Shown here one piece after another: positions 8,908 to 32,387 of a stretch of DNA of 64,000 bases (position 1 is its first letter; each line of letters starts with the position of its first letter). The position numbers and the translations under genes are program-made. The stretch is from Geodermatophilus sp. DF01-2 (GTDB lineage: Bacteria; Actinomycetota; Actinomycetes; Mycobacteriales; Geodermatophilaceae): positions 1-64,000 of the forward strand of contig NZ_SPQN01000007.1 in NCBI RefSeq assembly GCF_004571065.1. The letters are read 5' to 3'. The notes under the pieces were generated by a model. That model searched no databases, had not been told where the DNA came from, and worked only from the letters and a program-made list of their open reading frames with translations.

Positions 8908-8982
8908 GCCCCCGTAGCTCAGGGGATAGAGCACCGCCCTCCGGAGGCGGGTGCGCAGGTTCGAATCCTGCCGGGGGCACCA
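8908..8982 (+). tRNA. tRNA-Arg (anticodon CCG)
   Basis: Cloverleaf read directly: acceptor GCCCCCG pairs with CGGGGGC, discriminator A at 8979 and encoded CCA at 8980-8982. The D arm is GCTC/GAGC. The anticodon stem is CCGCC/GGCGG with loop CTCCGGA, giving anticodon CCG, which reads CGG. The T arm contains GGTTCGAATCC. The 3' part (8935-8982) is part of the 48-bp repeat created by island integration, so the tRNA is intact but its last two thirds were supplied by the element. Confidence 0.97.
8935..8982 (+). repeat. attL: 48-bp direct repeat within tRNA-Arg
   Basis: Bases 8935-8982, from the anticodon stem through CCA, are identical to 32340-32387. Identity stops at both sides (C versus T before, C versus G after). 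Integration into the anticodon-to-CCA half of a tRNA is typical of tyrosine integrases. The adjacent integrase gene confirms this as the left attachment site. Confidence 0.93.
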
Positions 8983-9016: not shown

Positions 9017-10195
9017 TCAGTTCGACGCTGGATCAAGCGTGAACAGGTCCGGAGTCCGCAAATAGTCCGCAGAACGTTCGCGGACCGTCCGCGCAGCGAG
9101 GTCCAAGCGCTCCGCTACTGCGTCGAGGTCCTCGTCGAAAAGGTCGGCGTAGGTGTCCAACGTCATGGCGGCCGAGGCGTGCCCCAGCATCCGTTGCACC
9201 GCCTTCACGTTGGCACCGGATGACACGGCCAGGCTGGCGGCCGTGTGCCGGAGCTCGTGCGGCACGAGTCCCTCCAGTCCCAGCGCCTGGGCGGCCCGGT
9301 CGAAGCCCGCTCTGCGGAACACACGGTTGCGCAGCACTCCCCCGGCCCGCAGGCCAGTGAAGACGAGATCCTCAGGTTCCCGGCCTGCCAGCTGTTCGCG
9401 CAGGTCCTCGGCGATGAAGGCCGGGATCGGAACCGATCGGCGCTCGTACCCCTTGGGCGCGCCCCAGGTCAGCAGTCCGTCGACCTCGACGACCGATTCG
9501 GCGATCTCGATCCGGCGTCGGCGAAGGTCGACCCGCTTCACCTTGAGGGCTGCCAACTCGCCCCAGCGCAGCCCGCAGTACGCGAGGACGAGCACGACGA
9601 CGCGGTAGGAGGCCATGATCTCTCGCTCGCGGTGCGGGAGGCGGGTGCCAGCCCGGAGAGAACATGTCGCGTCCGCGAGGCGGTGGACCTGTGCGTGTGT
9701 GAGGTACCGCCGCCGAGCCTGTTGGACTCGGGGCAGGTTGACCTTCTGGCACGGGTTCCGGGAAAGCCGTCCGTCACGCACGGCGAGATCGAGGATGAGG
9801 CTGAGGACTCGGAAGTGCTTGCGGACGGTCGCGGGGGCAACACCCTCCGCGTGCTGCTGCGCCACCCAGGCCTGGACGTCGGCGTGCGACACAGCCACCA
9901 ACTGGTAGGCGGACCAATGGGGCAGGACGTGCCTGTCGAGGATGCTTCGGTACCGCGACCGCGTCGTGGGCTTGAGCTGGGCCTGACCCTCGAACCACTT
10001 CTCCGCCCACGCGCCCACCTTGATCTTGCCCGCGCGAGGGTCGACGTAGTTCCCGGTCTCCATGGCGGCCGTGACGGAGTTCAGCCACCGCTGGGCGTCG
10101 ACCTTGCGCTTGAAGTGGCGGGCGTGCTCCTTGCCGTTCTCGTCCCGGTACCGCGGCCGGTATGTGCCATCGGGCCGCCTGGCGATCGACGCCAC
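9017..10195 (-). CDS. int: Tyrosine site-specific integrase
   Basis: 392 aa. Residues 1-60 form an Arg-rich arm-binding domain (AP2-like, YRPRYRDENGKEHARHF). Residues about 62-150 are the SAM-like core-binding domain, and 165-365 the catalytic domain. The catalytic set is visible: R210 in YCGLRWGEL, a Lys near 249, H313 and R316 in HELRHTAASL, H339 in LGHASAAMT and nucleophile Y349 in DTYADL. It reads toward the tRNA and ends 34 nt from it, the standard layout for an integrase beside its attachment site. Its 3' end contains the left candidate arm site. No excisionase gene is seen in the 122 nt between it and the relaxase gene. Confidence 0.95.
   Translation of the reverse strand: MASIARRPDGTYRPRYRDENGKEHARHFKRKVDAQRWLNSVTAAMETGNYVDPRAGKIKVGAWAEKWFEGQAQLKPTTRSRYRSILDRHVLPHWSAYQLVAVSHADVQAWVAQQHAEGVAPATVRKHFRVLSLILDLAVRDGRLSRNPCQKVNLPRVQQARRRYLTHAQVHRLADATCSLRAGTRLPHREREIMASYRVVVLVLAYCGLRWGELAALKVKRVDLRRRRIEIAESVVEVDGLLTWGAPKGYERRSVPIPAFIAEDLREQLAGREPEDLVFTGLRAGGVLRNRVFRRAGFDRAAQALGLEGLVPHELRHTAASLAVSSGANVKAVQRMLGHASAAMTLDTYADLFDEDLDAVAERLDLAARTVRERSADYLRTPDLFTLDPASN
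9051..9073. promoter_or_regulatory. Candidate left arm-type integrase site
   Basis: A 23-bp block beginning GGAGTCCGCAAA and containing AGTCCGCA twice, 11 bp apart. It matches 32215-32237 near the other end at 20 of 23 positions, in the same orientation. It lies inside the 3' end of int. Paired repeats near both ends of an integrated element fit arm-binding sites of the integrase, which is inference. Confidence 0.55.
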
Positions 10196-10317: not shown

Positions 10318-13300
10318 TCACCGGGAAATCCCCAGGCCCGGGTCGGGATGTCGAGCGAGCAGTCGGATGTCCTCGGGGCGCGGCGGCCGGACGCCCGGCT
10401 GAGATGGCGCCGACCGGTGGGCGGGTGTCCGGGTGGCGGCGGGCGCGGGGTCGTGGCGGGCACGCCAGCGGTCACGTTCTCTGGCGAGCTGGTCGGCCGG
10501 TTGGGCGAGGAGAGCCGGCTCGGCCGTCAGGCAGGTGATGCGGGCGCGGACGGCGGCCAGTTCTGTCTCGGTGGCGGCGATGTCCCGGTCGGTGTCGGCC
10601 AGTCGCTCCGCCGGGTCGGGGGTCCAGGCGAGGCGCCCGAAGCGGGCGAGCCGGTCCTCGTGCTGTCGGCGGGCGTGGGCCACCGCGGCTCCGGCGTGCC
10701 GGTGGGTCTCCTGGGCGGCGGCTGCGACCGCGCGCAGCTGGGCGTGTTCGGGGTGGGCGCGTTCGGCGTGGTGGCGGGCGTAGGAGTCGAAGGCCGTCAA
10801 GAGCCGCGGTCGGTCGTCGGACCGGTCGGCCAGGCGCGCGATCTGCTGCGGGTCGGTGGGCATCGCGGGCAGGTAGGGCCGCCAGGCGTCCGCCCAGTCG
10901 ACCAGCTGCTCGCCGGCCCGGTGCACCGTCGCCCGCCGAAGCCGGAGCCGGCCGGGACCGTCGAGCACGACCTGCGCGACGTCACGGACGGCGTTCCGCC
11001 CGGTGTCCCAGCTGCCGAGCAGCGTGTCGCGGATACGGTCGGTCTCGGCGGTGACGTCCGCGCCGCTGGCGTCGGCGCGCGCCGTGGCGCGGCGGGCCGC
11101 AATCCCGGTCTGCTCGTACCGGGCTTCCAGCGCGTCGGCCCGGTCGGCGTGGGCGGACTCGAGCGCGACGATCTCGCGCAGCGCGTCCCGGCGAGGCACG
11201 TCGTGGGCGAGCCGATCCAGGCAGCGCTGCTCGGCCATCCACGCCGCGTGTAGGTCGGCGAGCACCTGCTCCAGCGGCTGCGGTGTGGCGTAACGGGCGG
11301 CCTCGGCGGCTGCCAATTGTGCGGCGTGCGCCGGGCCGAGGTCGGCGCGGTCGCGGGCGAAGACGGCGAGCCACTGCTCCCGCGCCTCGGCGGGATCGGT
11401 CGCCACGAGGTGGGCGGTGTTGGCCTCCCTGCCGCGGGTCATCCCGACGTAGGCCGCGGCCGCGCCGGTGTCCTCGCCGACCACCAGGTGCGCGGCGGTC
11501 ACCGTGTCGCCTTGCACGCCGTGCGCGGTGGTGGCGTAGGCCAGTTCGACGTGCGCGGTGACGTAGTCGGCGGGCAGCACCCGCTCCCCTCCCCGGGCCG
11601 GGGTGACGGCGAGGGTGACATGCGGCGCGCCGTTGGGGATGACGACCAGCCCGCCGTTCCGGTCGACAGCGGTGACCGTCCACACGTCGCGGTTGGCCAC
11701 CTCGAGGTGGCGGTCGTTGCGGCGGGTGGCGATCCGATCGCCGACGCCGATCCGCTCCCCGGCCCCGGCGATGGCGACGCGCTGGTCGTCGACCCGGCCT
11801 TCGGTGACCAGGCGGTCGCGGATGGCGGCGTTGAGGGCGGCGGCCTGCTCGCGTGTGGCGACCACCACGGCCACGCGCTCGCCCGCGGTGTAGCCGTCGG
11901 CCGCGGCGGCGAGCGTCTCCCGCAGCGCCTCGGGGTCGGTGTGCAGCCGGATCTGCCCGCGGGCCAGCAGCGCGTCGAACACCGCCCCGGGGTTCTCGCC
12001 GGCGCGCATCGTCAGGGTCAGCTCGGCGTAGTCGGTGTCCGGTGTCGTGTGGCCGGTGGCGTCGGTGCGGGTGAAGCGGTGCACCCCGACCAGGGTCAGG
12101 TGCTCGGCCGGGTCGACCTGGGCCGCGGCGAGGTCGAGGACGCCGCCGCGGCCGACCGCCGCGAGCTGATGCCGGTCCCCGAGCAGGGCGAGGTGCACCT
12201 GGCACTCGTCGGCGACCGTCAGCAGGGCCCGGGCGGTGTCCTGGTCCAGCATGCCCGCCTCGTCCACGACGAGGAGATCGCGGGCCCGCAGCCGCGCCCC
12301 CTCAGCGGGTCCGGCATACGCCCGCCCGGTGACCGGGTCGGCGTGGCCGACGGCGAGGCGGGTCCACCCGCCGTCATCATTCCAGCGCCAGCCGTATTCG
12401 AAGGCCAGCCGGGCCGCCGAACCGGCGACCGCGCCGACCTCCGCGGCGGCGACCTGGGCCGCCTTCAGGGTCGGGGTCACCACCACCAGCCGGCGGCCCT
12501 GCTCGGCGAGCGCTTGCCTGGTGGCGGCCAGGGTGGTGGTCTTGCCGGCGCCGGCCGCACCCACGACCACGACCAGGGCCCGCTGGCCGGCGAGCGCGGC
12601 GACCGCCGCCGCCTGCCCCGGGTCCAACCGGCTGTCACCCACCGCCACGGGCGGCGTCGGGTTGTTGTCAGGGAAACCGGCCGGGCGTTCGGTGGCGCGG
12701 GAGGCGAGGCGGGCGGTGAGGTCGGCCTCGACGGCGAGCACCGGGCTCGATGTCCAGGCCCGGATGTGCTCTGGCACCCCGCCGGCAGGACTGTGGCGCT
12801 CCAGCAGCGGCTGGCAGCGGGACAGGGTTCGGGCGGTGAGGTCTTCGGCGAGCTCGTTGCGCACCGCCGGGTCGGTGACGATGCCGGCGGCGGCGATCAG
12901 CTGTTCGACCTCGCCCCGGACGTCGGCGGCGTTCCACGCCGAGCGGGCGGCGCCCAGCCGGGCCAGCACCCGGCCCACCAGCTGCTCCCGGTTCAGGCTG
13001 CCGACCGGGGTGGGGGTCAGGCCGATCGGGACGTCGCGGTCGCGGTAGCCCAGGGCGGCCAGCTCGGCCCGCCACCGGGCCGTGAGGTCCTCCCCCGGCT
13101 GTGGCAGCACCTTGTCCGGGCGGCCCGCGGCCCACGCCCGCGCGTCCCAGGAGCGGCGCAACGACGGGCCGGGGGATTCGCCGGGATGCGCCGCAGTCCA
13201 TTCCCGTTCGTAGGTGTCGATGTTACGGGCGATCTGCGTGGTCCGGGCGCTGAAGGCACCCACGAAATCCGCCAGCTGCCGGATCTCCCCGCCGTCATTC

Positions 13301-13974
13301 AACGCATACCCGTGGGCGGCGAGGACGGCCCGGGATTGCGGGTCGCAGGCGACCGCGGCGTGCCCGATACCGTTGATTGCGTCCAGCGAGTCGCGGACAC
13401 CGACGGTGTGCAGCCCGCGCCATTTCCCGGCCGCGAACACCCGGGCGTTGATCTGCAGGTGCAGATGGCGATGCGGATCCCCGGCCCGCGACGTGTAGTG
13501 CGCCACCGTCACCGCCTCGGCCACCTGCACCGGCACCTGCACCTGCCCGCCCCGCGGACCGACCCGGGTGGTGGCGTGCTGCCCCAGCCAGCCGATGATC
13601 TGCTCGGCCGCCCGAGCCTGAGCCGCGTCGTACGCCGTCGCGACGTCTGGATGCAGCGCGACCGCCAGCGACCACGTCTTCGGCCCGTTCACCACCACCT
13701 CGACAAACCGCACCGCATGCCCGTCACCGCGCAGCTGCCCCCGCGGCTCGCCGGTCCCCGGATCGCAGCCGGCCACCCACGTCTCATAGGCGTCACCGGT
13801 CAGCGGCGCCAGCTCACTCACCCGCCCCTCGGTGACGCTGAACCGGCGCGCGACGCCGGCGCCCTCGGCGAGGTAGTAGTCATCCGCCCGGCCCCGGTCA
13901 GCCTCCACGTAGTGGCGGGCAGCCGCCGGCGCGCCGGCGTAGATCTTCATCCCGCCATGCATTTTCAACGCCAC
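10318..13974 (-). CDS. MobF-family conjugative relaxase-helicase (TraA/TrwC-like)
   Basis: 1218 aa. Nicks and unwinds transferred DNA in conjugation. The N-terminal relaxase domain (1-about 300) has candidate tyrosines near residues 12, 22 and 33-34, and the metal-binding His triad H168, H170, H172 in PHRHLHLQINA. The central SF1B helicase (about 440-850) has Walker A GAAGAGKTTT (K478), Walker B LLVVDEAGMLD, motif III LLGDRHQLAAVGRGG and a late motif TAHGVQGDTVTAAHL. The C-terminal 300 residues are Ala/Arg-rich and helical. Full length argues that it is functional. It is the only transfer gene seen, so movement would need another element's secretion system. It is co-oriented with int. Confidence 0.92.
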   Translation of the reverse strand: MALKMHGGMKIYAGAPAAARHYVEADRGRADDYYLAEGAGVARRFSVTEGRVSELAPLTGDAYETWVAGCDPGTGEPRGQLRGDGHAVRFVEVVVNGPKTWSLAVALHPDVATAYDAAQARAAEQIIGWLGQHATTRVGPRGGQVQVPVQVAEAVTVAHYTSRAGDPHRHLHLQINARVFAAGKWRGLHTVGVRDSLDAINGIGHAAVACDPQSRAVLAAHGYALNDGGEIRQLADFVGAFSARTTQIARNIDTYEREWTAAHPGESPGPSLRRSWDARAWAAGRPDKVLPQPGEDLTARWRAELAALGYRDRDVPIGLTPTPVGSLNREQLVGRVLARLGAARSAWNAADVRGEVEQLIAAAGIVTDPAVRNELAEDLTARTLSRCQPLLERHSPAGGVPEHIRAWTSSPVLAVEADLTARLASRATERPAGFPDNNPTPPVAVGDSRLDPGQAAAVAALAGQRALVVVVGAAGAGKTTTLAATRQALAEQGRRLVVVTPTLKAAQVAAAEVGAVAGSAARLAFEYGWRWNDDGGWTRLAVGHADPVTGRAYAGPAEGARLRARDLLVVDEAGMLDQDTARALLTVADECQVHLALLGDRHQLAAVGRGGVLDLAAAQVDPAEHLTLVGVHRFTRTDATGHTTPDTDYAELTLTMRAGENPGAVFDALLARGQIRLHTDPEALRETLAAAADGYTAGERVAVVVATREQAAALNAAIRDRLVTEGRVDDQRVAIAGAGERIGVGDRIATRRNDRHLEVANRDVWTVTAVDRNGGLVVIPNGAPHVTLAVTPARGGERVLPADYVTAHVELAYATTAHGVQGDTVTAAHLVVGEDTGAAAAYVGMTRGREANTAHLVATDPAEAREQWLAVFARDRADLGPAHAAQLAAAEAARYATPQPLEQVLADLHAAWMAEQRCLDRLAHDVPRRDALREIVALESAHADRADALEARYEQTGIAARRATARADASGADVTAETDRIRDTLLGSWDTGRNAVRDVAQVVLDGPGRLRLRRATVHRAGEQLVDWADAWRPYLPAMPTDPQQIARLADRSDDRPRLLTAFDSYARHHAERAHPEHAQLRAVAAAAQETHRHAGAAVAHARRQHEDRLARFGRLAWTPDPAERLADTDRDIAATETELAAVRARITCLTAEPALLAQPADQLARERDRWRARHDPAPAATRTPAHRSAPSQPGVRPPRPEDIRLLARHPDPGLGISR

Positions 13975-14059
13975 CCGACAATGACCAACAAGTCACCCCC
14001 AGAAGCGGCGATGGGCCCCGCAAAGCAGGACCCGACCTACCTCCGAAGGTAGCATGCGT

Positions 14060-14127: not shown

Positions 14128-14400
14128 GCTTAACCTTGGCCATGCGGACGTCACGTTCGGCGGCGTTGTTGTCAAACGGCACCCGCGGGTCGATCGCAAA
14201 GCGCAGGTAGTCCTCGATGCACCGGTGGATGCGGCGGGCCAGCGCACGGTGCCGGCGGCCGACCGCGCCGGGCGGCAGGTCGCGGCGGAGGCGCCGATGA
14301 GCGCTGCGGACACGATCATCTGTCGCCGAGTGGCCAGCAGGCCGGGGTCGGACCGTACGCCGGTGTCGGTGAGCTGCTTGAGCGCGAGCAGCGCGTCGAT
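14090..14400 (-). pseudogene. IS66-family transposase, C-terminal remnant
   Basis: The minus strand encodes DYLRFAIDPRVPFDNNAAERD followed by VRMAKVKQKVS, the conserved end of IS66 transposases (final DDE glutamate in the ERD motif). Upstream sequence resembling LLALKQLTDTG lies in another frame, so the copy is frameshifted and lacks most of the gene. The downstream end runs into three tandem units that scramble the frame. No terminal repeats were identified. It lies just upstream of the relaxase gene start, so its insertion may have replaced neighbouring transfer genes. Confidence 0.75.
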
Positions 14401-16256: not shown

Positions 16257-16483
16257 CACACCCCTTCGCGTTACGGTCTCCTATCGGTCAGGACGCATGG
16301 CGGGCGCGCAGCGGACGCAGCAGTCATGCGCCTACACGCCGCAGTCGTGCGTCATACCGAGAAAGCCGCCACCTCGTCCTGGTGGCGACCACCGTGAAGG
16401 CCGCGCACTCTCGGGACGCAGGAAGTAGACCTCAGGCCCGCGTCAGTCAGAGAGATGTTGCGGCCGAGTCGCCCCGTCTAGAA

Positions 16484-17647: not shown

Positions 17648-18339
17648 CGTCGAGGACCGGAGAGCGCCCGTTGCGATCGGCATCGCTTGTAATCAACGAT
17701 GTGAGCCTCTCTTTGGCGGGGAACCAGATACTCTCCGACGCAACCGCGGCTGTCTCTCGCGGCGACTACGTCACCGTTACTGGGCGGTCTGGTTCGGGGA
17801 AGAGCACTCTGTTGAATCTCATCGCCGGAAATCTCCGCCCCGACCGTGGCGTAGTCGAGATCAACGGCCGTGACCTCGCGCGACGGCGGGACCGTTTGCT
17901 GGCGCAACGAGGGGACATCGGATACGTCTATCAGACATCGCAGCTTGTAGCCTGGATGTCAGCGCTCGACAATGTGCTTCTCGGAATGCGTTATCAGGAC
18001 GTCAGTTCATCATCGAGGCTCAAGCGGGCCGAGCAGGCGTTGACACACGTGGGTTTGGCGCGGCGCGCCCATCATCGTCCGCATGAACTCTCGGGCGGCG
18101 AGCGGCAGCGGGTCTCTTTGGCTCGTGCTGTCGCACGTCGCCCCAGTCTCTTACTGGCAGATGAACCGACGGGCAACCTCGATGGAGCGACCGGAGCCGA
18201 GATTATCTCCGTGATCGAGTTGATGCGGCTGGACGCTGCCATCATCTTGGTTACACACGATTCTGCCTTGGCTGCCCGCGGAAGCCGTCGCTGGATTGTC
18301 GACTCCAGTCGACTTCACGAAGTGTCAGATGTTCAGTAA
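17644..18339 (+). CDS. ABC transporter ATP-binding protein (MacB/LolD type)
   Basis: 231 aa. Walker A GRSGSGKSTLL, Q loop in YVYQTSQLVAWMSAL, signature LSGGERQRVSLARA, Walker B LLLADEPTGNLDG and switch His in VTHDSA are all intact. Sequence type is that of FtsE/LolD/MacB exporters that drive mechanotransmission rather than classical transport. It overlaps the adaptor stop (ATGA) and runs 11 nt into the permease gene. Confidence 0.93.
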   Translation: MTSRTGERPLRSASLVINDVSLSLAGNQILSDATAAVSRGDYVTVTGRSGSGKSTLLNLIAGNLRPDRGVVEINGRDLARRRDRLLAQRGDIGYVYQTSQLVAWMSALDNVLLGMRYQDVSSSSRLKRAEQALTHVGLARRAHHRPHELSGGERQRVSLARAVARRPSLLLADEPTGNLDGATGAEIISVIELMRLDAAIILVTHDSALAARGSRRWIVDSSRLHEVSDVQ

Positions 18340-19468
18340 CTGGCCCCTCATCGAGGCTTTACGAATCTGCAGGGCACGGCCGAGAAGTAGCTCGACGAGT
18401 ATAGCCATGCTGCTGATTGCTGTGTGCACCATCATGCTCGTACCCTCACTGACGTCGGGCGCCGCTACCAAATTGCTCAGCGAGCTTGACGCTCTAGGAT
18501 CAGACGCTTGGTCCGTGACCCCGCAGCTCTTGCCCGGACAAGCGCCGCAACGGCTGGCTGATGGAACTCTGGAACGGGTTGCTGCCCTGCCGGGTGTCAC
18601 GTCGGTGACCTATGTCGTCGAGACGAACGCAACGGTGACGACATCCTTAGTCGATACGCGAGTCCAGCGCGTGCTCGTGGCCGGCGTTTCTTTCATGGGC
18701 AACCCCCGAATCAGCGAGGTGGTGACGGGGGAGCGCCGTGCAGTGCAGGGTTTGCCGTTTGCCGTCGTCGGCAGGGTGGCTGCCCAAGTGCTTGGTGTAG
18801 ATAGCCTGCCCGCCGTCATCTATGTCTCGGGGCAAGCGGTCAGGGTGACGGGCATCGCCGGTGACGATCCGCTCTTCCCACACTTGACCGACGCCGTTAT
18901 GGTCGATCCGACCTTCGCCCTCAGGCTTGACTCGGCTGGTGCGGCTGAAACGCTGGGGATTAGAGCGGAGGGCGTTCTCACGAACGACCTCATCCGTCGC
19001 GTTGTCGATCCGTTCGATGCGACCACGCTCGTCGTCGAGCGCCCGCCCGGCCTAGTTGAGGCCCGAGAGAAGTCAGGCGGGGTCTTGAGTGGGTTGGCGT
19101 TAGTTGGAAGCGTCACGGCGTTCGGTGCGGCTCTGATCGGAGTCGGTGTAACCATGACCGCGGCCGTCCGGCAGCGCAGTAGCGAGCTCGCCCTGCGGCG
19201 GGTGCACGGGGCCTCGCAATTCGCGATCATAAAGCTGATCGTCGCCGAGGCCGTCCTCTTGGGGCTGGTCGGCGGAGGTCTAGGAGTCGGCCTCGGGACC
19301 GGAACGTTTCGTATCGTCTGTCTCGTCAATGACTGGCCCTTCTTGTTCAACGGTGGGCTGGCCCTGGCAGGGATCGGCCTGTCATTGACTACCTGCCTTT
19401 TCGCATCACTAGTTCCTGCTGTCGTGGCGGTGAGGATGGAGCCGACGCGGGCGCTTGCAGTCGAGTAG
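18329..19468 (+). CDS. FtsX/MacB-type ABC permease
   Basis: 379 aa from ATG 18329. TM1 (STSIAMLLIAVCTIMLV) is followed by a large extracytoplasmic domain (about 45-245). Three C-terminal spans follow (LALVGSVTAFGAALIGVGVT; LIVAEAVLLGLVGGGLGVGL; LALAGIGLSLTTCLFASLVP). The coupling segment RQRSSELALRRVHGAS and the final PTRALAVE are typical of FtsX-like permeases. It pairs with the ATPase at 17644 and adaptor at 16484. The cargo is unknown. Confidence 0.9.
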   Translation: MFSNWPLIEALRICRARPRSSSTSIAMLLIAVCTIMLVPSLTSGAATKLLSELDALGSDAWSVTPQLLPGQAPQRLADGTLERVAALPGVTSVTYVVETNATVTTSLVDTRVQRVLVAGVSFMGNPRISEVVTGERRAVQGLPFAVVGRVAAQVLGVDSLPAVIYVSGQAVRVTGIAGDDPLFPHLTDAVMVDPTFALRLDSAGAAETLGIRAEGVLTNDLIRRVVDPFDATTLVVERPPGLVEAREKSGGVLSGLALVGSVTAFGAALIGVGVTMTAAVRQRSSELALRRVHGASQFAIIKLIVAEAVLLGLVGGGLGVGLGTGTFRIVCLVNDWPFLFNGGLALAGIGLSLTTCLFASLVPAVVAVRMEPTRALAVE

Positions 19469-22455: not shown

Positions 22456-24870
22456 TTGGATCAGATGGTCTTGGCCGCCCAACAATGGGTGAACCGCACC
22501 TACAGCGGTCGTGTGGGATACGTTGCCTGCCCGGAGAATGGGAAGACGGGCTGGTCGACCATGTATTCGCTTACGCGGGCGCTCCAGCTGGAGCTCGGCA
22601 TCACCGCAACGTCCGACTCCTTTGGCCCCACGACGCTCAGCAAGCTGCAAGCGAGAGGCAACGTTGGTCCCGGCGACCCAAAGCCCAACATCGTGAGCAT
22701 CGCACAGTCGGCCTTTTACTGCAAGGGATACGCGCCTGGTGGCATCACCGGACAGTTCGGCCCAGGGACCAGCTTCGCTGTTCATTCGATGATGCGCGAC
22801 ATGGGCCTGCAGGACTACGATAACGGCACCCTCCAGCCAAAAGTATATAAGGCTCTGCTCACCATGGATGCCTACGTCGTGGTCTCTGGGGGAACGGCAG
22901 ACATCCGCGCCATCCAGCAGTGGCTGAACGGCCGCTACTGGCTCAAGTCGACCTTCTTCGTCAGCCCCTGCGACGGTCTGTACACCCGCGACGTCCAAAA
23001 GGCGCTCATGAGGGCCATACAGTACGAGCTCGGCATTCCCGAGGCCTCGGTTAATGGCAACTTCGGGCCGAGCACGCAAGAAGGGCTAAAACAAAAGTCT
23101 GTTTACCCTGGCCACTCTGGCATTTTCGTCCAGCTCTTTTCAGCCGCCTGCGTTTTTAACAGCCCCGTCACGATGGGGTATAACAACACCTACACGACGA
23201 CCTGGCGATCGACCTTCGATCCGACCCTGCAGGCCTTCGTGCGTGCCTTCCAGGAGTTTTCGGCGCTGCCGCGCGCTGGCCGCATGATGCGGGACCCTGA
23301 CACCGGACAGGCGGTGTACAACGGATACGGCGATTACGACACCTGGGCACAGCTCCTTGTGTCGATGGGTAATGCTGACCGGACGGAGGTCTATGCCTGC
23401 GATACTCGCTTCCACATCTCGGTGTCGCGAGCCGTCGCGTTGAAGGAAGCCGGGTATGAAGTAGTCGGCCGCTACCTGGACGAGCCGCCGGATAGCTCCT
23501 TGAACAAGGAAATCCAGGATGGCGAGCTCGAGGCCATCTTCGCCGGCGGGCTGCGAGTCTTCCCGATTTGGCAGATGCACGGACGAAACCTGACGGACTT
23601 TCTTTATGGCAAGGGGCAAGAGCACGGAGCCAGGGCTCACGAGCGGGCCTTGCAGTACGGCTTCAACCGCGGGACAGTCATCTACTTCGCCGTTGACTAC
23701 GACGCCACAGACGAACAAATCTCCAGCCACATTGTCCCCTACTTCCGGGGGGTTCAGTCAGGCCTTGCAGAGAAGGGACGACGTTACGTGGCCGGAGTTT
23801 ACGGCTCGCGCAACGTGTGCACCCGCGTAAGCAACGAAGCCGCCGCCCGCTACTCGTTCGTCTCCGGCATGTCCTACGCCTTCTCCGGTAACCTAGGCTT
23901 TTCGCTGCCGAGCAACTGGAGCTTCAATCAGATCAAAGAGTTCAAGTTCACGAACGGATCTGACGCATTCGACCTCGACCGCACTGTTCGGCGGCCGAAC
24001 AGCGACATGGGCGCGGGACGGGAAGACATTAACGGACAAGCGTCCGAGCTGGACGAGTTTCTGCAATACATCGATGACCTCTACGCCGCCGCCGTGCGGT
24101 ATCAGGCGGCGTACCCCAATGCTTCATCCGACACCAACCTTCTCGTGTTGGACTGGCTGCGGTCTCCAAACTACACAGGAATTCAGAAGGGTTGGGATAT
24201 CCTCATCCAACCCGCTTCAGACCACTGGCGGGGCTGGGCCACGGACAATGCGCCGCAAAAGCGGCACAGCTTCACCGATCCAGCATACGGTTTCTCCGTA
24301 AACATCGATCACCTCGCCGCCACGGCACGAGTCATCCTCACGCAAGGCACGGGGGCGGGCACCGCGGCCGACCGCGGCGACTTCGGCGGGTGGGGTGGCG
24401 ACCTCACCACTCTGTACGCGCAGTGGCAGAACGCTGAGGCGTCCTACGCCTCAGGCTATGCCTTCTGCATGGAACGCCTCGCCCGCCCAACCGTGGACTC
24501 GTCGTTCAGCTTTCCGGACATGATCGAAGACGTCGACGGCCACCTTCTTGGTTCACAGATAAGGACCGGCGGCAAGTTCAACGAAGAGCTCCGCCGCCAC
24601 CTCAAAGGTGATGGCGCCAGGACGCGCTTCCGCCAGTTCTGGAACGATCGCTTCGGTGGCAGTCGCGCGACATGCGTCGGCGCGGCGAGGAGCATGCTCA
24701 CCGACGGCGGCATAGACGTTGTTCTGGACGGCATCAGGGACGGGGCCGTGTTGTACACCGCCGGCCCGAACACGCTCGTGCCTCAAATGTTACCCGCCTA
24801 CAAGCTTGATCCCTACCTGGAGGGCTTTGCCGACACGCTTATTCGCTTGGTCGACGTAGAGTCTGCCTAA
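22456..24870 (+). CDS. Large protein with peptidoglycan-binding-like repeats and a DUF1906 glycoside-hydrolase-like domain
   Basis: 804 aa. Residues 1 to about 300 hold repeated peptidoglycan-binding-like units (ALQLELGITATSDSFGPTTL; AIQYELGIPEASVNGNFGPS). Residues about 311-515 match DUF1906, the Rv2525c-like TIM-barrel family related to GH25 lysozymes (HISVSRAVALKEAGYEVVGR; VIYFAVDYDATDEQI; VAGVYGSRNVC). The C-terminal 290 residues are unfamiliar and mostly helical. TTG 22456 is chosen because AAGGAG lies 8 nt upstream; ATG 22465 is the alternative. No signal peptide is visible, so the protein either leaves by a non-Sec route or acts after lysis. G+C is clearly below the core. It precedes a small membrane protein gene and a Tat-exported wall-peptidase homologue. 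Confidence 0.85.
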   Translation: MDQMVLAAQQWVNRTYSGRVGYVACPENGKTGWSTMYSLTRALQLELGITATSDSFGPTTLSKLQARGNVGPGDPKPNIVSIAQSAFYCKGYAPGGITGQFGPGTSFAVHSMMRDMGLQDYDNGTLQPKVYKALLTMDAYVVVSGGTADIRAIQQWLNGRYWLKSTFFVSPCDGLYTRDVQKALMRAIQYELGIPEASVNGNFGPSTQEGLKQKSVYPGHSGIFVQLFSAACVFNSPVTMGYNNTYTTTWRSTFDPTLQAFVRAFQEFSALPRAGRMMRDPDTGQAVYNGYGDYDTWAQLLVSMGNADRTEVYACDTRFHISVSRAVALKEAGYEVVGRYLDEPPDSSLNKEIQDGELEAIFAGGLRVFPIWQMHGRNLTDFLYGKGQEHGARAHERALQYGFNRGTVIYFAVDYDATDEQISSHIVPYFRGVQSGLAEKGRRYVAGVYGSRNVCTRVSNEAAARYSFVSGMSYAFSGNLGFSLPSNWSFNQIKEFKFTNGSDAFDLDRTVRRPNSDMGAGREDINGQASELDEFLQYIDDLYAAAVRYQAAYPNASSDTNLLVLDWLRSPNYTGIQKGWDILIQPASDHWRGWATDNAPQKRHSFTDPAYGFSVNIDHLAATARVILTQGTGAGTAADRGDFGGWGGDLTTLYAQWQNAEASYASGYAFCMERLARPTVDSSFSFPDMIEDVDGHLLGSQIRTGGKFNEELRRHLKGDGARTRFRQFWNDRFGGSRATCVGAARSMLTDGGIDVVLDGIRDGAVLYTAGPNTLVPQMLPAYKLDPYLEGFADTLIRLVDVESA

Positions 24871-24951
24871 CGAGTCGGCACGACTGAAGATCCGCAGGAC
24901 GGCGCTCAGCCCGGCTTGTGCGCGAGAGACAACGAAGGGTTCGCATTCGCG

Positions 24952-25266
24952 ATGTCTACACGCGCGTGGCGCACGACCACCGGATGGCTAGTTGCCATCT
25001 GGGGACTGTGGATCATTATGGGGTTTGTTCACGTCCTTCAATGGAACAAGGAAGAAGTGTGCGAGTTCATACACGAGCAGCAGTATGACCCAGAGGTGGG
25101 CCAGGCGGTGCAGCTATTCCCACTGTCGAACAAATGCAACGCCGAGTATGACCTGATGCCTCCGTACGTTAATCCCGGCATCGTGGCGTTGACCGTCTTG
25201 GTCGTTCTATCTCTGTACTTCTACCGTCGAGCAGTGGCAAGGGAGCGAGCCGACAGTGCTGAGTGA
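24952..25266 (+). CDS. Small two-span membrane protein
   Basis: 104 aa. TM1 is WLVAIWGLWIIMGFVHVL and TM2 VALTVLVVLSLYFYRR. The roughly 50-residue loop between them has two Cys (EEVCEFIHEQ, NKCNAEYD) that could form an external disulfide. The ATG at 24952 gives MSTRAWRTTTGW; the ribosome site is weak. The stop overlaps the start of the next gene by 11 nt, so the two are coupled. No family is recognised. Position suggests it anchors or helps the M15-like protein. Confidence 0.7.
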   Translation: MSTRAWRTTTGWLVAIWGLWIIMGFVHVLQWNKEEVCEFIHEQQYDPEVGQAVQLFPLSNKCNAEYDLMPPYVNPGIVALTVLVVLSLYFYRRAVARERADSAE

Positions 25267-25966
25267 GAGCTTTACCGAAGGCCGCAGGTCGAGCGCGTCG
25301 CGGCGCCAGTTTCTTCTGGGAGGCCTAGGCGTCGTCGGCACGGCGACCCTGCTGATGGCTCGCGCTGAGCCAGCGGCCGCCGCACCGCCCGTAGCTGACA
25401 AGGGGCCGAGCCCCTGGCGCAAACAGACTTCGGCGAACGGGTGGCCAATCCTCAACGCGGCATCGCAACAGACCATTGAGGGCGCCAATGCCGTCTCAGT
25501 CGCGATTGCTGAGGGAGATGCGGCCATCATACTATGCCACGTCGTCAGACGCTTCCACTATGACATTGACGCCCTTCGCCAGGGTGACGTCTTAGGTCAC
25601 AGCACCGAGCGTCTCGTAGCTCAGGAGTACGAGTCGAACTACTTATCGGGCACCGCCATAGCCATCCGCCCAGGGTCGTATCCGGCCGGCGTCGCTGGGG
25701 GACTCTTCGCCAACGAGTTGGTTGTCGTCCGTGACATATTGGCCGAGTGCGGAGGCGTTGTGCGCTGGGGAGGCGATGAAGCCGTGCCCAAGGAGAGTCA
25801 CTTCCAGATCGACTATGGTCCCGGGGCCCGGGAGGTCAAGGACCTGGCAGCTACGATTAGGGGCTGGAATGAGACGCCCGGCGCTGGCGCGGGAGCGGTC
25901 AACGCTTTTGAAGCTGGTCGGCGTCGGGCCGCAGAGGCCATGGAGAAGCGCCAGAAGCAGGACTAG
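25256..25966 (+). CDS. Tat-exported M15 peptidase-like protein with degenerate zinc site
   Basis: 236 aa. A twin-arginine signal is clear: S15-R16-R17-Q-F-L, hydrophobic LLGGLGVVGTATLL, cleavage near AEPAAAA. The rest aligns by eye with actinobacterial D-Ala-D-Ala carboxypeptidases of family M15 (GWPIL start, VVRRFHYDID, ILAECGGVVRWGGD, SHFQI). The usual SxHxxGxAxD zinc motif reads SNYLSGTAIAI, so the His is Y129 and the Asp is A136. Only H182 of the third ligand motif remains. It should therefore not be an active zinc peptidase; a wall-binding or scaffolding role is possible. Coupled to the membrane protein before it. Confidence 0.8.
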   Translation: MLSESFTEGRRSSASRRQFLLGGLGVVGTATLLMARAEPAAAAPPVADKGPSPWRKQTSANGWPILNAASQQTIEGANAVSVAIAEGDAAIILCHVVRRFHYDIDALRQGDVLGHSTERLVAQEYESNYLSGTAIAIRPGSYPAGVAGGLFANELVVVRDILAECGGVVRWGGDEAVPKESHFQIDYGPGAREVKDLAATIRGWNETPGAGAGAVNAFEAGRRRAAEAMEKRQKQD

Positions 25967-25978
25967 CACGACGGCTTA

Positions 25979-27023
25979 GAGACTGTCTTGTAATTGATCG
26001 CTCACGCCGCCAGTCGGCCTTCGATGGTCAGGCGGCGGTGGGCTTGGCGTTCGGTGGCGTTGCTCCAGGCGACGTTCTGGCCGGCCAGCCGGGTGGCCAT
26101 GAGTCGGATCATGGCGGTCTTGACCATCGTCTCCGAGGTGGTGGTCAGCCGCTCGTAGTCGCGGGCCAGCCGCCGATTGCGGACCAGCCAGCCGAAGGTG
26201 CGCTCGACCACCCAGCGGCGGGCCAGCACCTGGAAGCCCTTGACCGCGTCGTTGCGCTTCACGATCGCGACCAGCAGGCGCAACTTGTCCCTGGCCCAGT
26301 CCAGCAGGCCCGCGTCGACGCGGTTGGCGTAGCCGCCGTCGGCCCAAACCAGCGCGATCGTGGGAAAGCGGTCGGCCAGCCGTTGCAGGATCGCCTTGCC
26401 GCCGGCGCGGTCTTGCACGCTGGCCGCGGTGACCATCACCACCAGCAGTAGACCGAGGGTGTCGACCACGATGTGCCGCTTGCGGCCGGTGGTCTTCTTG
26501 CCCGCGTCGAATCCGCGGGCCTCGCCGCCCTCGCTGCTCTTGACCGACTGGGCGTCGAGCACTCCGGCCGTGGGGTTCGGATCTCGTCCGGCGGCCATCC
26601 TGACCTGCGCGCGCGGCTGGTCGTGCACCGCGTCCCAGGTGCCGTCGGCTTCCCAGGTGCGGTACCAGCGGTAGGCCGTCGACCACGGCGCCAGGTCGTG
26701 CGGCACCATCCGCCACTGGCAGCCGGTGCGCAGCACGTAGAAGATCGCGTTCAGGACCAGCCGGTTGTCATACACCCGGGGCCGGCCGGCCCGGTGCGGA
26801 TCATGGGTCGGGAACAGCGGCTCGAGCACCGACCACAGCTCGTCGGTGATGCTGGAGGGATAGTCTCGTGCGGCGTCGTCCCCGCCGCTGGCGCGCTTGG
26901 TCACACAACGCACCGTGGCGGGGACGACCTCCGCTTCCAGGTGCCACGCCGACCGCGCACGAGACCGCCCTCACCCGCGCTGGGTCATCACTCATCGCAG
27001 CGGATCGATTACAGGACAGTCTC
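25979..27023. mobile_element. Complete IS5-family insertion sequence
   Basis: 1045 bp. The left end GAGACTGTCTTGTAATTGAT and the reverse complement of the right end, GAGACTGTCCTGTAATCGAT, match at 18 of 20 positions. TTA at 25976-25978 is repeated at 27024-27026 as a target duplication. It holds one full transposase gene. It inserted 10 nt after the M15-like gene without breaking it. Confidence 0.9.
26002..26913 (-). CDS. IS5-family transposase
   Basis: 303 aa DDE transposase in one frame. The N-terminal helix-turn-helix part is ITDELWSVLEPLFPTHDPHR and GRPRVYDNRLVLNAIFYVLR. The catalytic residues are seen in LDAQSVKSSEGG (first Asp), WADGGYANRV (second Asp) and VVERTFGWLVRNRR (Glu). The GTG at 26913 gives VRCVTKRAS; a shorter form could begin at the GTG 26904. 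It is intact with both terminal repeats, so it is probably active. Confidence 0.95.
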   Translation of the reverse strand: MRCVTKRASGGDDAARDYPSSITDELWSVLEPLFPTHDPHRAGRPRVYDNRLVLNAIFYVLRTGCQWRMVPHDLAPWSTAYRWYRTWEADGTWDAVHDQPRAQVRMAAGRDPNPTAGVLDAQSVKSSEGGEARGFDAGKKTTGRKRHIVVDTLGLLLVVMVTAASVQDRAGGKAILQRLADRFPTIALVWADGGYANRVDAGLLDWARDKLRLLVAIVKRNDAVKGFQVLARRWVVERTFGWLVRNRRLARDYERLTTTSETMVKTAMIRLMATRLAGQNVAWSNATERQAHRRLTIEGRLAA

Positions 27024-28018: not shown

Positions 28019-28570
28019 ATGTCGTTGACGGAACTGCACCTGGCGCTCCTCGTGGGTGCTCCCCGGCACGGGTACGACATCAAGCAGGCGCACGACGCAT
28101 GGTTTCCGGACAGCCGCCCGCTGCCGTTCGGGCAGGTCTACGCCACCCTGGGCCGCCTGCAGCGGGACGGCTTGGCCGAGGTGGTGGAGACGCGGGTCGA
28201 CGGCGGCCCGGAGCGGACTGTCTACGCGCTCACCGCCGAGGGGGCCCAGCGGCTGCACGCGTGGCTAGCCGAGCCGGCAGCACCGACCGGAGCCGGTGCT
28301 GAGGAGATCGTCCGCAAGGCGATCGCCGCATTGCACACCGGCATCGACGTCCAGGGCTTCGTCGGTCGGCAGCGCGCGGCGCACCTGCGCCGGATGCGTG
28401 AGCTGCAGCAGACGCCGCCGGGGGCTGGACCGGCGGAGCGGCTGGTCCGTGAGCACCTGATCGCACACCTGGACGCCGACCTCCGCTGGCTCGACCTCGC
28501 CACCGACCTACTGCCGGTCACCGCCGGCGGCCAGCCCGCCCGTACCGACTCTCAGGAGAACGACACATGA
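28019..28570 (+). CDS. PadR-family transcriptional regulator
   Basis: 183 aa. The N-terminal winged helix is typical of PadR (LHLALLVGAPRHGYDIKQAH; GQVYATLGRLQRDGLAEVVE; ERTVYALTAEGAQRLHAWLA). A C-terminal helical dimerisation arm follows (VGRQRAAHLRRMRELQQ). PadR proteins repress drug or lipid export genes until a ligand binds. The last codons overlap the ATG of the ABC gene by 4 nt, so regulator and exporter are one operon. Confidence 0.93.
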   Translation: MSLTELHLALLVGAPRHGYDIKQAHDAWFPDSRPLPFGQVYATLGRLQRDGLAEVVETRVDGGPERTVYALTAEGAQRLHAWLAEPAAPTGAGAEEIVRKAIAALHTGIDVQGFVGRQRAAHLRRMRELQQTPPGAGPAERLVREHLIAHLDADLRWLDLATDLLPVTAGGQPARTDSQENDT

Positions 28571-29247
28571 ACCAGGCCACGCTCGCACTGTCTGGCGTCA
28601 GCCACTCCTACGGCCGCACCCAGGCGCTGCGGGACGTGACACTGTCGGTCGCTCCCGGTGAGGTCGTCGCCGTCACCGGCCCGAGCGGCTGCGGCAAGTC
28701 CACGCTGGTGATGCTCGCCGCCGGAGTGATGCGAACGCAGACCGGACGGGTGGTCGTGGCGGGCACCGACCTGGGCGGTGTCGACGATGCCGAACGAGCG
28801 CGGATCCGCAGACGGTCGGTGGGTCTGCTACTCCAATTCGGTCAGCTCGTTCCCGACCTGCCGGTGCTGGACAACGTCGCCCTGCCGCTGCTGCTGGACG
28901 GTCACGCCCCGGCCGAGGCGCGGGCGGCCGCCGCCGGATGGCTAGGACGGGTCGGGCTCGACGTCGACCACACCGCGTTGCCCTCGCAGCTGTCCGGCGG
29001 GCAGGCGCAGCTGGCGGCCGCCGCCCGGGCGCTGATCGCCGGACCGCCGCTGCTGCTCGCCGACGAGCCGACGGCCAGCCTGGACCAGACGTCGGGCCGG
29101 GCACTGCTCGACCTGCTCATCGGTACCACCATCCAGGCCGGTGGGTCGGTCCTGCTGGTCAGTCACGACAACGCCGTCGCCGCGCGGGCCGACCGGGAAG
29201 TCCGGCTGCGCGGCGGGGCCATCGCGCATGAGGTGGCGCTGTCGTGA
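28567..29247 (+). CDS. ABC transporter ATP-binding protein
   Basis: 226 aa. Walker A GPSGCGKSTLV, Q loop LLLQFGQLVPDLPVL, signature LSGGQAQLAAAARAL (a Q-A variant of the usual Q-R), Walker B LLLADEPTASLDQ and switch LVSHDN are present. It is of the LolD/MacB type. Both ends overlap neighbours by 4 nt (ATGA with padR-like, GTGA with the permease), so the three proteins should be made together. Confidence 0.93.
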   Translation: MNQATLALSGVSHSYGRTQALRDVTLSVAPGEVVAVTGPSGCGKSTLVMLAAGVMRTQTGRVVVAGTDLGGVDDAERARIRRRSVGLLLQFGQLVPDLPVLDNVALPLLLDGHAPAEARAAAAGWLGRVGLDVDHTALPSQLSGGQAQLAAAARALIAGPPLLLADEPTASLDQTSGRALLDLLIGTTIQAGGSVLLVSHDNAVAARADREVRLRGGAIAHEVALS

Positions 29248-30566
29248 AGATCTCGACCGCCTGGCTGCTCGCCCGGCCGAAGACCGCGACCGGCCGCACC
29301 CGCACCCGGCTGATTGCCGCCGGCTCTGCCACGGCGGGGGGACTGCTGCTCGCCGCCCTCGCGGTCCTGCGAGTGCCCTCCGCTGAGCCGACACCGACCA
29401 CCGGCGCCTCCTACGATCCGCGGTTCTCCGAGCTGGTCATCCACGGCGGACTCAAGCCCGGCGTGATCACCGGCATCCTGCTGCTGGTGGTCCCGGCGCT
29501 GGCCCTGACCTGGCAGGCCGTCACCACCGGCAGCGCGCGCCGGGCAGCGATTCAGCGCGGACTGCAGCTGGCCGGCGCGACACCGGCCGACCTGCGCCGG
29601 GTGGCTGCGCTGGAGCCGGCGGTGGCCGGTCTGCTCGGTGGGCTGCTGGCCGGGCCGGTCTACCTGCTCCTCTGGCTGGTGCTGGGACCCGCCGCCCCAA
29701 CGCGCGTCCGTCTGCTCCCGGACCTGTCCCCGGTCGACGCCCTGACCTGGTCCGCCATCGCCCTGTTCACCGCACTCCTCGCAGCCGCCGCCGGCGCCCG
29801 CTCGGCAACGCCCCGAACCCGCCGCCCGGTCCTCCCCTGGACCCGCCTGACCGGGGTCGCGGTCGGCGCCGCCGCGGTCTGGCTGGCGCTCCGGGAACCA
29901 CTAGACACCCCCGTCCTCCGGACCGTCTCGATGTGCGTCGCCGTCACGGTGCTGCTGCTGGCCCTGCTGTCCACCGGGTCGATCTGGGCCACGTCGAGAG
30001 CAAAGCGGCTCAGCCGGACCGGCCGGCCGGTCGATCTGCTCGCTGCCGGGGGCCTCCGCGCGCTCGCCGGCACCGCCGGACGCACGGCCGGGACCGTCTT
30101 GATCGCCGGGCTGACGCTGGGCATCGCCGCGGCGCTGCTCGGCATCACCCTGGCACCGCAACACTCCTTCTCCGACGCACTGCCCGGCGTGCTGCTGACC
30201 ATCCTGGCCGGCACGCTCGCCGTCCTGGTCGCCGTGACCGCCATGACACTCGCCGCCACCGACGACCTGGTGACAACCAGTCGGGCACTGGCGTCCACCG
30301 CCGCACTCGGAGCCGAACCGGCCGCGCTCGAACGGGTGCAGCGCCGCCGCCTCGAGGTGGTGACCGTGGGTCCCATGGCCGCCGGCCTGCTGCTGGGCGG
30401 AGTCGGCTACCCGGCATTGGGCGGCTCCCCCCTCGGAATCGGCACCGCGCTGATCGCTACGACGGTCGCGCTTCTCCTGATCCGGGGCCTGACCAGCCTG
30501 GTGACCCGGATACTCCGCCCACGGATCATGCGCGCGGCCGACCCGGCCGCACTGCGGGTCGCATGA
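29244..30566 (+). CDS. FtsX-like ABC permease
   Basis: 440 aa with about eight membrane spans. It shows the MacB/FtsX permease core twice (GLQLAGATPADLRRVAALEP and ALASTAALGAEPAALERVQR coupling segments), as in duplicated efflux permeases. It is coupled by GTGA to its ATPase and controlled by the PadR-like gene. A small-molecule efflux role is likely. The substrate is unknown. Confidence 0.9.
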   Translation: MKISTAWLLARPKTATGRTRTRLIAAGSATAGGLLLAALAVLRVPSAEPTPTTGASYDPRFSELVIHGGLKPGVITGILLLVVPALALTWQAVTTGSARRAAIQRGLQLAGATPADLRRVAALEPAVAGLLGGLLAGPVYLLLWLVLGPAAPTRVRLLPDLSPVDALTWSAIALFTALLAAAAGARSATPRTRRPVLPWTRLTGVAVGAAAVWLALREPLDTPVLRTVSMCVAVTVLLLALLSTGSIWATSRAKRLSRTGRPVDLLAAGGLRALAGTAGRTAGTVLIAGLTLGIAAALLGITLAPQHSFSDALPGVLLTILAGTLAVLVAVTAMTLAATDDLVTTSRALASTAALGAEPAALERVQRRRLEVVTVGPMAAGLLLGGVGYPALGGSPLGIGTALIATTVALLLIRGLTSLVTRILRPRIMRAADPAALRVA

Positions 30567-32339: not shown

Positions 32340-32387
32340 CGCCCTCCGGAGGCGGGTGCGCAGGTTCGAATCCTGCCGGGGGCACCA
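32340..32387 (+). repeat. attR: second copy of the 48-bp tRNA-Arg 3' segment
   Basis: Identical to 8935-8982 but preceded by CCGAAT rather than the tRNA 5' half, so it cannot encode a tRNA. It is followed by the hairpin at 32404-32436 and by core sequence. It marks the right boundary of the element. Confidence 0.93.

What the first reader, a model, noticed from the sequence alone, without database searches (positions are those of the whole stretch)
22456..25966. Possible new wall-targeting module: signal-less DUF1906 protein, two-span protein and M15 pseudoenzyme
An 804-aa protein with peptidoglycan-binding-like repeats and a GH25-related domain, a small disulfide-type membrane protein, and a Tat-exported M15-like protein lie together, the last two overlapping. 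All suggest action on peptidoglycan, but the first lacks a signal and the last lacks zinc ligands. It could be a defence, competition or lysis device of the element.
Basis: partly seen in the sequence, partly recalled or inferred. Interest (0 to 1): 0.65.

Follow-up and report, generated by a model that had tools for sequence, protein, structure and literature searches.

The report
Predicted wall-targeting toxin gene trio
Three neighbouring genes on a mobile element of an actinobacterium look like a weapon against rival bacteria: a large toxin that grips the cell wall and probably destroys the wall's lipid-linked building block, a small membrane protein that probably protects the producer, and an exported, disarmed relative of a wall-cutting enzyme; the arrangement was outlined in print in 2025.

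Summary
In detail: the three genes are real and form a conserved, accessory module. In 295 Streptomyces genomes, 90 of 99 places with a relative of the first protein have a relative of the exported LAS/M15-like protein downstream. The first protein has no signal; it joins peptidoglycan-binding repeats, an Rv2525c/DUF1906 barrel (Z 21) and a C-terminal domain with the published TelC signature. That domain's best PDB sequence match, weak (E 0.05), is the TelC lipid II phosphatase toxin. The same three-gene arrangement is already described as a predicted conflict system (PMC12419801), so it is not a new module. Added here: the N-terminal half is homologous to BacA of enterococcal bacteriocin 41; the VanY-like companion keeps the full zinc triad in only 2 of 86 copies; the C-terminus is swapped between unrelated domains; and the trio is cargo of a 23.5-kb tRNA-Arg integrative element. 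Most likely function: antibacterial competition, inferred, untested.

The parts
22456..24870 (+). Effector protein, 804 aa, signal-less: N-terminal peptidoglycan-binding-like repeats, Rv2525c/DUF1906 barrel, TelC-like C-terminal domain
22456..23385 (+). Residues 1-310: helical peptidoglycan-binding-like repeats (one PG_binding_1 match at residues 80-119)
   Evidence: Pfam; AF2 secondary structure
23386..24021 (+). Residues 311-522: Rv2525c-like / GH25-like TIM barrel; D316, D414, D416 present in 98 of 98 copies
23992..24867 (+). Residues 513-804: TelC-like (Lipocone) C-terminal domain with H619, W646-x-G648-D649, D688, D692, D694, R724
   Evidence: published signature
24952..25266 (+). Small membrane protein, 104 aa, two predicted spans in this copy, outer loop with two Cys and F-P-L...C-N...Y-V-N-P; member of the '3TM-CCDN' type; candidate immunity protein
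25256..25966 (+). Exported (RR signal) LAS/M15-fold protein, 236 aa, two of three zinc ligands replaced (Y129, A136, H182); 'VanY superfamily' companion
8935..8982 (+). attL: 3' 48 bases of tRNA-Arg (CCG) 8908-8982
32340..32387 (+). attR: exact 48-base repeat of the tRNA-Arg 3' end
9017..10195 (-). Tyrosine integrase of the carrier element (PF00589)
10318..13974 (-). TrwC-type relaxase/helicase of the carrier element
26002..26913 (-). IS4/IS5-type transposase immediately downstream of the module

Best explanation
The three genes are the cargo weapon of an integrative mobilizable element: an antibacterial effector with its protection. The effector (22456-24870) leaves the producer by a route not identified here, docks on the wall of a rival through its PG-binding repeats and Rv2525c-type barrel (the part it shares with BacA of bacteriocin 41), and its TelC-type C-terminal domain cleaves lipid II at the outer membrane face, stopping wall synthesis. 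The small membrane protein (24952-25266) sits in the producer's membrane with its loop outside and blocks the C-terminal domain. The Tat-exported LAS-fold protein (25256-25966) works on the wall side as a non-catalytic binder that handles or blocks the targeting half. Shown here: genes, co-inheritance, domain make-up, conserved residues, ligand loss, mobile carrier. Inferred: toxicity, lipid II as target, immunity, role of the LAS-fold protein, export.
For: Co-inheritance at 90 of 99 places in 295 genomes; accessory: 0 of 25 other genomes of the genus and 4 of 396 phylum genomes, own genome included. Homology to BacA (189/507 identities, E 6e-95), whose plasmid operon also carries a 595-aa wall hydrolase, a gene named bacL2 and a holin. 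C-terminal domain: H619, D649, D692, D694, R724 in 57 of 57 and D688 in 55 of 57 C1 copies (6 of the 57 repeat another record), fitting the published TelC signature of two Asp six apart with an Arg in the C-terminal extension; the best PDB sequence match of the profile is 5UKH = TelC, with YxxxxWD, GWxGD and DxxxDxD in the same order. 5 of 5 Firmicutes loci have a predicted membrane protein just downstream. The published domain analysis reads the same arrangement as a potential conflict system. In 28 C1 loci the small membrane protein's divergence follows the C-terminal domain (partial r 0.44, p 0.001) and the LAS protein's follows the N-terminal half (0.52, p 0.001).
Against: No activity data. 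The TelC match is weak by sequence (E 0.05), and the C-terminal domain was not folded and searched alone. The 3TM-type protein is not seen in 21 of 57 C1 and 26 of 36 C2 copies by BLAST (7 of the 21 and 6 of the 26 have another small predicted membrane protein; one more C2 copy shows the motif), and the same family occurs with both C-terminal types, which a strict one-toxin-one-immunity reading does not predict. The link of membrane protein to C-terminus weakens when close relatives are removed (p 0.064 with 19 loci, 0.13 with 14), and with 14 loci the membrane protein follows the N-terminal half better (0.30, p 0.016); so it does also with all 38 loci (0.205 against 0.187). No export route is known; no relative of BacL1, BacL2 or the Bac41 holin was found in the window.
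Confidence: 0.6

Rival explanations
1. Export apparatus: the small membrane protein and the exported LAS-fold protein form a holin/endopeptidase-like (type 10-like) route that lets the signal-less 804-aa protein through membrane and wall, rather than protecting against it.
For: The first protein has no signal. The LAS protein's best sequence match in the PDB is ChiX, a hydrolase required for chitinase secretion in Serratia. The Bac41 operon holds a 'toxin secretion/phage lysis holin'.
Against: The full zinc triad is kept in only 2 of 86 LAS copies. The membrane protein matched no Pfam, NCBIfam or PHROG family at E 1, and many loci have the LAS protein without it. An 8.6-kb Lactiplantibacillus plasmid has no LAS protein and no relative of the membrane protein, only an unrelated five-span ORF.
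Confidence: 0.15
2. The LAS-fold protein is an active second lytic enzyme, the counterpart of BacL1, and the trio is a two-component bacteriolysin.
For: Bac41 needs an endopeptidase (BacL1) plus BacA (passages). Two of 86 companions keep His-Asp-His. PMC12419801 calls it a secreted VanY superfamily peptidase.
Against: The window copy has Tyr and Ala at two ligand positions. The Asp is replaced in 17 of 17 copies of alignment A2.
Confidence: 0.08
3. Phage defence or self-lysis (abortive) device of the element.
For: Located on a mobile element with integrase and relaxase. DUF1906-type domains occur in phage endolysins.
Against: No PADLOC match at E 0.01 for any of the three; TelC is reported active only outside the cell.
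Confidence: 0.06
4. Ordinary wall-remodelling genes of filamentous actinobacteria.
For: The barrel is closest to Rv2525c, a Tat-secreted mycobacterial protein (a wall-related role is recalled). Many Streptomyces copies lie on multi-megabase contigs.
Against: Present in 74 of 295 Streptomyces genomes, in 0 of 25 other genomes of the genus, and on 544 of 72,556 plasmid records; the C-terminus is swapped between loci.
Confidence: 0.06

Closest known systems
TelC + PGBD + Rv2525c-barrel / 3TM-CCDN / secreted VanY-superfamily conflict system (Burroughs, Nicastro and Aravind 2025, PMC12419801; section 31 read whole, other parts as passages)
   Same: Same three components in Actinomycetota in one operon: PGBD and Rv2525c barrel fused to TelC, a 3-TM protein with two outside Cys, Asp and Asn, and a secreted VanY-superfamily protein; also read there as a potential conflict system.
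   Different: This copy has two predicted spans instead of three; its VanY-like protein has lost two of three zinc ligands (the full triad is kept in 2 of 86 copies); the membrane and VanY-like families are also found with an unrelated C-terminal domain, C2. The paper's main text has no occurrence of Bac41, BacA or 'bacteriocin'.
Bacteriocin 41 of Enterococcus faecalis (BacL1, BacL2, BacA, BacI)
   Same: BacA (the 726-aa gene of L022) shares residues 1-495 (37% identity) with the effector: PG-binding repeats and Rv2525c barrel; no signal found in either; a predicted membrane protein is encoded downstream.
   Different: BacA's C-terminus is a different domain (Ybfg_C match, hydrophobic tail); no relative of BacL1, BacL2 or the holin in the window; no LAS-fold companion found in the L022 stretch.
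TelC / TipC of Streptococcus intermedius (type VII toxin and immunity)
   Same: C-terminal domain with the TelC Asp signature; membrane-borne candidate immunity protein with its loop outside.
   Different: Delivery half is PG-binding plus Rv2525c barrel, not LXG; the immunity candidate is a multi-span protein, whereas TipC has one N-terminal span and a soluble domain.
Rv2525c (PF08924)
   Same: Barrel residues 311-522, Z 21.1 to 4pmq.
   Different: Rv2525c is Tat-secreted (entry title) and a single-domain protein (recalled); here the barrel is the middle of a signal-less 804-aa protein.
ChiX / LAS (M15, VanY) peptidases
   Same: LAS fold (first 14 VIA rows, Z 4.1-5.6); ChiX is the best PDB sequence match (E 0.0017).
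   Different: His68 and Asp75 of ChiX correspond to Y129 and A136 in the window copy.

Membership tests
PF08924 Rv2525c-like | Score above Pfam gathering cut-off | tested here: met
   170.6 bits against 27.2; Z 21.1 to 4pmq, rmsd 2.6 over 196 residues
prok-TelC (Lipocone) | Asp six positions downstream of the active-site Asp of helix H4, with a conserved Arg in the C-terminal extension | tested here: met
   D688 (55 of 57) and D694 (57 of 57) in predicted helix 686-703; R724 (57 of 57). That helix 686-703 is H4 is my assignment
prok-TelC (Lipocone) | Sequence similarity to TelC | tested here: inconclusive
   Best PDB match is TelC 5UKH but E 0.05; two further motifs in order, each without significance
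prok-TelC (Lipocone) | Helical fold with one beta hairpin | tested here: inconclusive
   AF2 shows helices with short strands 605-607 and 614-616; the domain was not searched alone and the VIA list covers mainly 308-522
prok-TelC (Lipocone) | Calcium-dependent lipid II phosphatase activity | not testable with these tools
   needs the bench
Published TelC/3TM-CCDN/VanY conflict system | Three genes together in one operon | tested here: met
   In the window; 35 of 57 C1 copies have all three
Published TelC/3TM-CCDN/VanY conflict system | Membrane protein with two Cys, Asp, Asn outside between spans | tested here: met
   Loop between predicted spans with two Cys, Asp and Asn residues; two spans instead of three in this copy
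Bacteriocin 41 | BacA N-terminal half | tested here: met
   189/507 identities, E 6e-95
Bacteriocin 41 | BacL1 endopeptidase encoded alongside | tested here: not met
   tblastn of six Bac41-operon products against the window at 1e-3: only BacA matches
LAS/M15 (VanY) peptidase | LAS fold | tested here: met
   First 14 VIA rows are LAS peptidases, related endolysins or Hedgehog domains, Z 4.1-5.6, next rows 2.7 and less; ChiX E 0.0017 by profile. Each alone is weak (Z under 8; Foldseek best E 0.39)
LAS/M15 (VanY) peptidase | His-Asp-His zinc ligands | tested here: not met
   Y129, A136, H182 in the window; full triad in 2 of 86 copies, absent in 83, one copy not aligned there
Polymorphic toxin system | Constant delivery part with interchangeable C-terminal domains | tested here: met
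   Clusters of 57, 36, 2 and 1 plus two truncated copies among 98; C1 and C2 profiles align only over 38 columns at the linker
Polymorphic toxin system | Cognate immunity protein matched to the C-terminal domain | tested here: inconclusive
   Partial r 0.44 (p 0.001, 28 loci), but p 0.064 and 0.13 when relatives are thinned to 19 and 14

The most novel reading that the evidence does not exclude
The LAS-fold companion is a dedicated pseudo-enzyme that lost metal catalysis and became the producer's wall-side shield or escort: it binds stem peptides or the effector's targeting half, so the system has two separate protections, one (3TM-CCDN) against the toxin domain and one against docking. This would be a general second layer of immunity for BacA-type toxins in actinobacteria.
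Probability: 0.25. Interest if true: 0.65.

Novelty: new member of a known kind. Interest (0 to 1): 0.42.

Why it matters
It links two literatures: bacteriocin 41, where BacA is a proven partner in killing, and the predicted TelC conflict systems of actinobacteria, for which I saw no experiment. If right, the BacA N-terminal half is the delivery chassis of a large family of wall-docking toxins found on Enterococcus, lactic acid bacterium and Streptomyces replicons, with exchangeable toxic ends. The mostly metal-less 'VanY' companion suggests that its published label as a peptidase may need revision. All of this is testable with three small genes.

Tried and rejected
Phage origin: an IMG/VR scan with the first protein found no relative; the phage collection gave 10 records, one (a faecal contig without annotation) covering 63% and the rest 23% or less. 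PHROG 15213 covers residues 1-713 but has no function. A scan of IMG/VR with the C-terminal profile gave two 25% matches, not followed up.

Gene fusions as proof of partnership: L018 and L026 seemed to join the first and third proteins, but look like decayed deletion copies and were not used.

C2 as a lytic transglycosylase: guessed from its letters; no PDB match at E 5 and no consistent Pfam match, so dropped. Foldseek on the third protein gave no match under E 0.001.

A scan for further conserved neighbours in 20 loci and the window pointed to no fourth partner, but its codon filter missed even the window's own third gene, so it says little.

Counts and drops. One search covered 112 stretches (8 partial or repeated loci left out beforehand); 110 matched the first protein; two (L117, L118, places of a lone third protein) did not. 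12 partial or re-fetched stretches were dropped, leaving the 98. Six of the 98 (L044, L049, L052, L058, L060, L100) repeat records held as L007, L009, L011, L012, L013, L010; they, L065, L067 and L119 were removed, but not. A4 holds 40 of the 57 C1 termini, A3 all 36 C2 termini, A1 and A2 the window plus 16 loci. Start codons of the third protein's relatives were chosen with a preference for an RR in the first 30 residues, so 'RR in 86 of 86' is biased and not counted as evidence. In one search rows were merged into 99 and 100 places. Partial Mantel p values tend to be too small for related sequences.

Literature searches. Three papers of that library hold two of Bac41, TelC, Rv2525c, DUF1906, lipocone: PMC12419801 has no Bac41, PMC12445918 and PMC5821083 (Bac41 and TelC once each) were not read, so a statement in print joining BacA to TelC is not excluded. 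The primary Bac41 papers were not held; what I say of them comes from passages in PMC8532689, PMC9951850 and PMC7018651. BacA = 726 aa is recalled.
Full report
WHAT IS THERE. The window holds three co-directional genes at 22456-24870, 24952-25266 and 25256-25966. G+C over 22.5-26 kb is 59-63%, against 65-67% in the 1.5 kb upstream and 70-74% in the 3.5 kb downstream. An IS4/IS5-type transposase follows at once (26002-26913, minus strand). The three genes are cargo: the last 48 bases of tRNA-Arg (8935-8982) recur exactly at 32340-32387 on the same strand, with a tyrosine integrase beside the tRNA and a TrwC-type relaxase next to it. The element is therefore about 23.5 kb.

FIRST PROTEIN. Pfam finds PF08924 and one PG_binding_1 domain. 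The AF2 model (mean pLDDT 82, pTM 0.65) shows helical repeats, a barrel and a helical C-terminal domain. Residues 311-522 match Rv2525c (Z 21.1, rmsd 2.6, 196 residues) and, further off, GH25 proteins (4ff5, 1jfx, 2x8r at Z 12.3, 11.8, 10.5). D316, D414 and D416 are present in 98 of 98 copies; that they correspond to the GH25 acidic residues is my inference. No export signal was found in this protein or in the other copies examined (96 in all).

C-TERMINAL DOMAIN. Residues 513-804 have no Pfam match. In 40 aligned copies R57, Y61, H107, W134, G136, D137, D180, D182 and R212 (domain numbering; add 512) never vary. A profile of these finds one PDB chain at E 0.1 or less: 5UKH, E 0.05, aligned over the DxxxDxD stretch, with WD and GWxGD in order but without significance. 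[quoted passage not shown] PMC12419801 gives as unique to TelC an Asp six positions after the active-site Asp of helix H4, paired with an Arg in a C-terminal extension (passages). D688 and D694 lie six apart in helix 686-703, and R724 follows.

PUBLISHED ALREADY. [quoted passage not shown] the authors read these as potential conflict systems. That is the trio found here.

CO-INHERITANCE AND DISTRIBUTION. Of 17 loci from genome contigs, 16 carry full-length relatives of the first protein (L018 is a decayed one), and all 17 carry a relative of the third close behind. Of 295 Streptomyces genomes, 74 have the first protein (99 places, E 1e-10) and 72 the third (100 places, E 1e-8); 90 of 99 first-protein places have the third within 3 kb downstream on the same strand, and 10 of 100 third-protein places lack the first. 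In the phylum sample 4 of 396 genomes have the first and 3 of 396 the third, own genome included in both. None of 25 other genomes of the genus has it; of 61 genomes searched there 3 matched: the own genome, one of the same order over residues 1-524, and one of the same family partially (271-468). On plasmids, 544 of 72,556 records match the first protein, 328 of them over at least 80%; 384 of the 544 are Enterococcus.

LINK TO BACTERIOCIN 41. On an E. faecalis plasmid (L022) the relative is a 726-aa gene behind a 595-aa hydrolase (Amidase_5, SH3_5, phage lysozyme), a gene named bacL2 and a holin. I identify it as BacA from this order and from its length (the length is recalled). The window protein aligns with it over 507 columns at 37% (E 6e-95) and stops near the barrel's end; BacA continues into a Ybfg_C-type domain with a hydrophobic tail. 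By contrast the E. faecalis protein of L019 aligns to residue 760 (33%) and falls into the same C-terminal cluster as the window. [quoted passage not shown] faecium plasmids (passages). A review states that Bac41 diversity lies in a downstream region linked to specific immunity factors (PMC8532689, passages).

EXCHANGEABLE ENDS. The C-termini of 98 copies fall into C1 (57, window type), C2 (36), C3 (2: BacA and an L. paracasei protein), one singleton and two truncated copies. C1 and C2 profiles share only 38 columns at the linker. The third protein accompanies both: 48 of 57 C1 and 36 of 36 C2 copies. The 3TM-type family accompanies 36 of 57 C1 and 10 of 36 C2 copies by BLAST, and one more C2 copy by motif; 7 further C1 and 6 further C2 copies have another small predicted membrane protein. 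In 5 of 5 Firmicutes loci a predicted membrane protein follows and no third protein was found.

THIRD PROTEIN. Its profile's best PDB match is ChiX (E 0.0017); VIA gives VanXY, LdcB, VanY, Ply500, ChiX and Hedgehog domains at Z 4.1-5.6, which is low, though the rows below are at 2.7 or less. ChiX binds zinc by His68, Asp75 and His123 (PMC5778951, passages). The corresponding residues are Y129, A136 and H182 in the window. Over 86 copies the combination is Tyr-Ala-His in 28, His-Ala-His in 12, Leu-Arg-Leu in 12, the full His-Asp-His in 2; one copy is not aligned there. So the published word 'peptidase' probably does not fit most copies. Other residues are kept (N128 in 84, G132 in 85, D160 in 84, W171 in 85 of 86), which argues for binding rather than decay.

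WHO MATCHES WHOM. Among 28 non-duplicate C1 loci the small membrane protein (mean identity 32%) diverges with the C-terminal domain beyond what the N-terminal half and the third protein explain (partial r 0.44, permutation p 0.001), while the third protein follows the N-terminal half (0.52, p 0.001) and not the C-terminus (-0.23). After thinning relatives to 19 and 14 loci the second link holds (p 0.01 and 0.012) and the first fades (p 0.064 and 0.13); with 14 loci the membrane protein follows the N-terminal half better (0.30, p 0.016). With all 38 loci of both types the membrane protein follows C-terminus and N-terminal half about equally (0.187 and 0.205). The link of LAS protein to docking half is thus the sturdier; that of membrane protein to toxin end is suggestive only.

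VERDICT. A real, conserved, mobile-element-borne module, very probably antibacterial, of a kind already outlined in print; the points added are the BacA connection, the loss of zinc ligands in the companion, the swapped ends with shared companions, and the carrier element. Function is inferred throughout.

Noticed in passing
8935-32387: A 23.5-kb integrative element in tRNA-Arg (48-bp exact repeats), with tyrosine integrase and TrwC relaxase next to attL; no other transfer genes were looked for.
   Followed up: partly
16382-19468: Low-G+C ABC exporter set inside the element: a protein with a PG_binding_1 match below cut-off, an ATPase (17644-18339) and an FtsX permease (18296-19468); a second ATPase with an FtsX-like protein (match below cut-off) lies at 28567-30566.
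   Followed up: no
13898-14404: IS66 transposase remnant (PF03050, E 1.4e-7) overlapping three 22-bp repeats at 14066-14134, next to the relaxase gene.
   Followed up: no
L018 1524-2963; L026 4280-6300: Decayed copies of the module in two Streptomyces records, with pieces of the first and third genes run together.
   Followed up: partly
L108, L109: The two copies whose LAS-fold companion keeps His-Asp-His both have a C2-type effector; possibly still active peptidases.
   Followed up: no
L023 (8,636-base Lactiplantibacillus plasmid): Carries a C1-type effector next to a PemK/MazF pair, with an unannotated ORF of five predicted spans downstream that could be its immunity protein.
   Followed up: no
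L120, L121: Two viral contigs encode 25%-identical relatives of the TelC-like domain.
   Followed up: no
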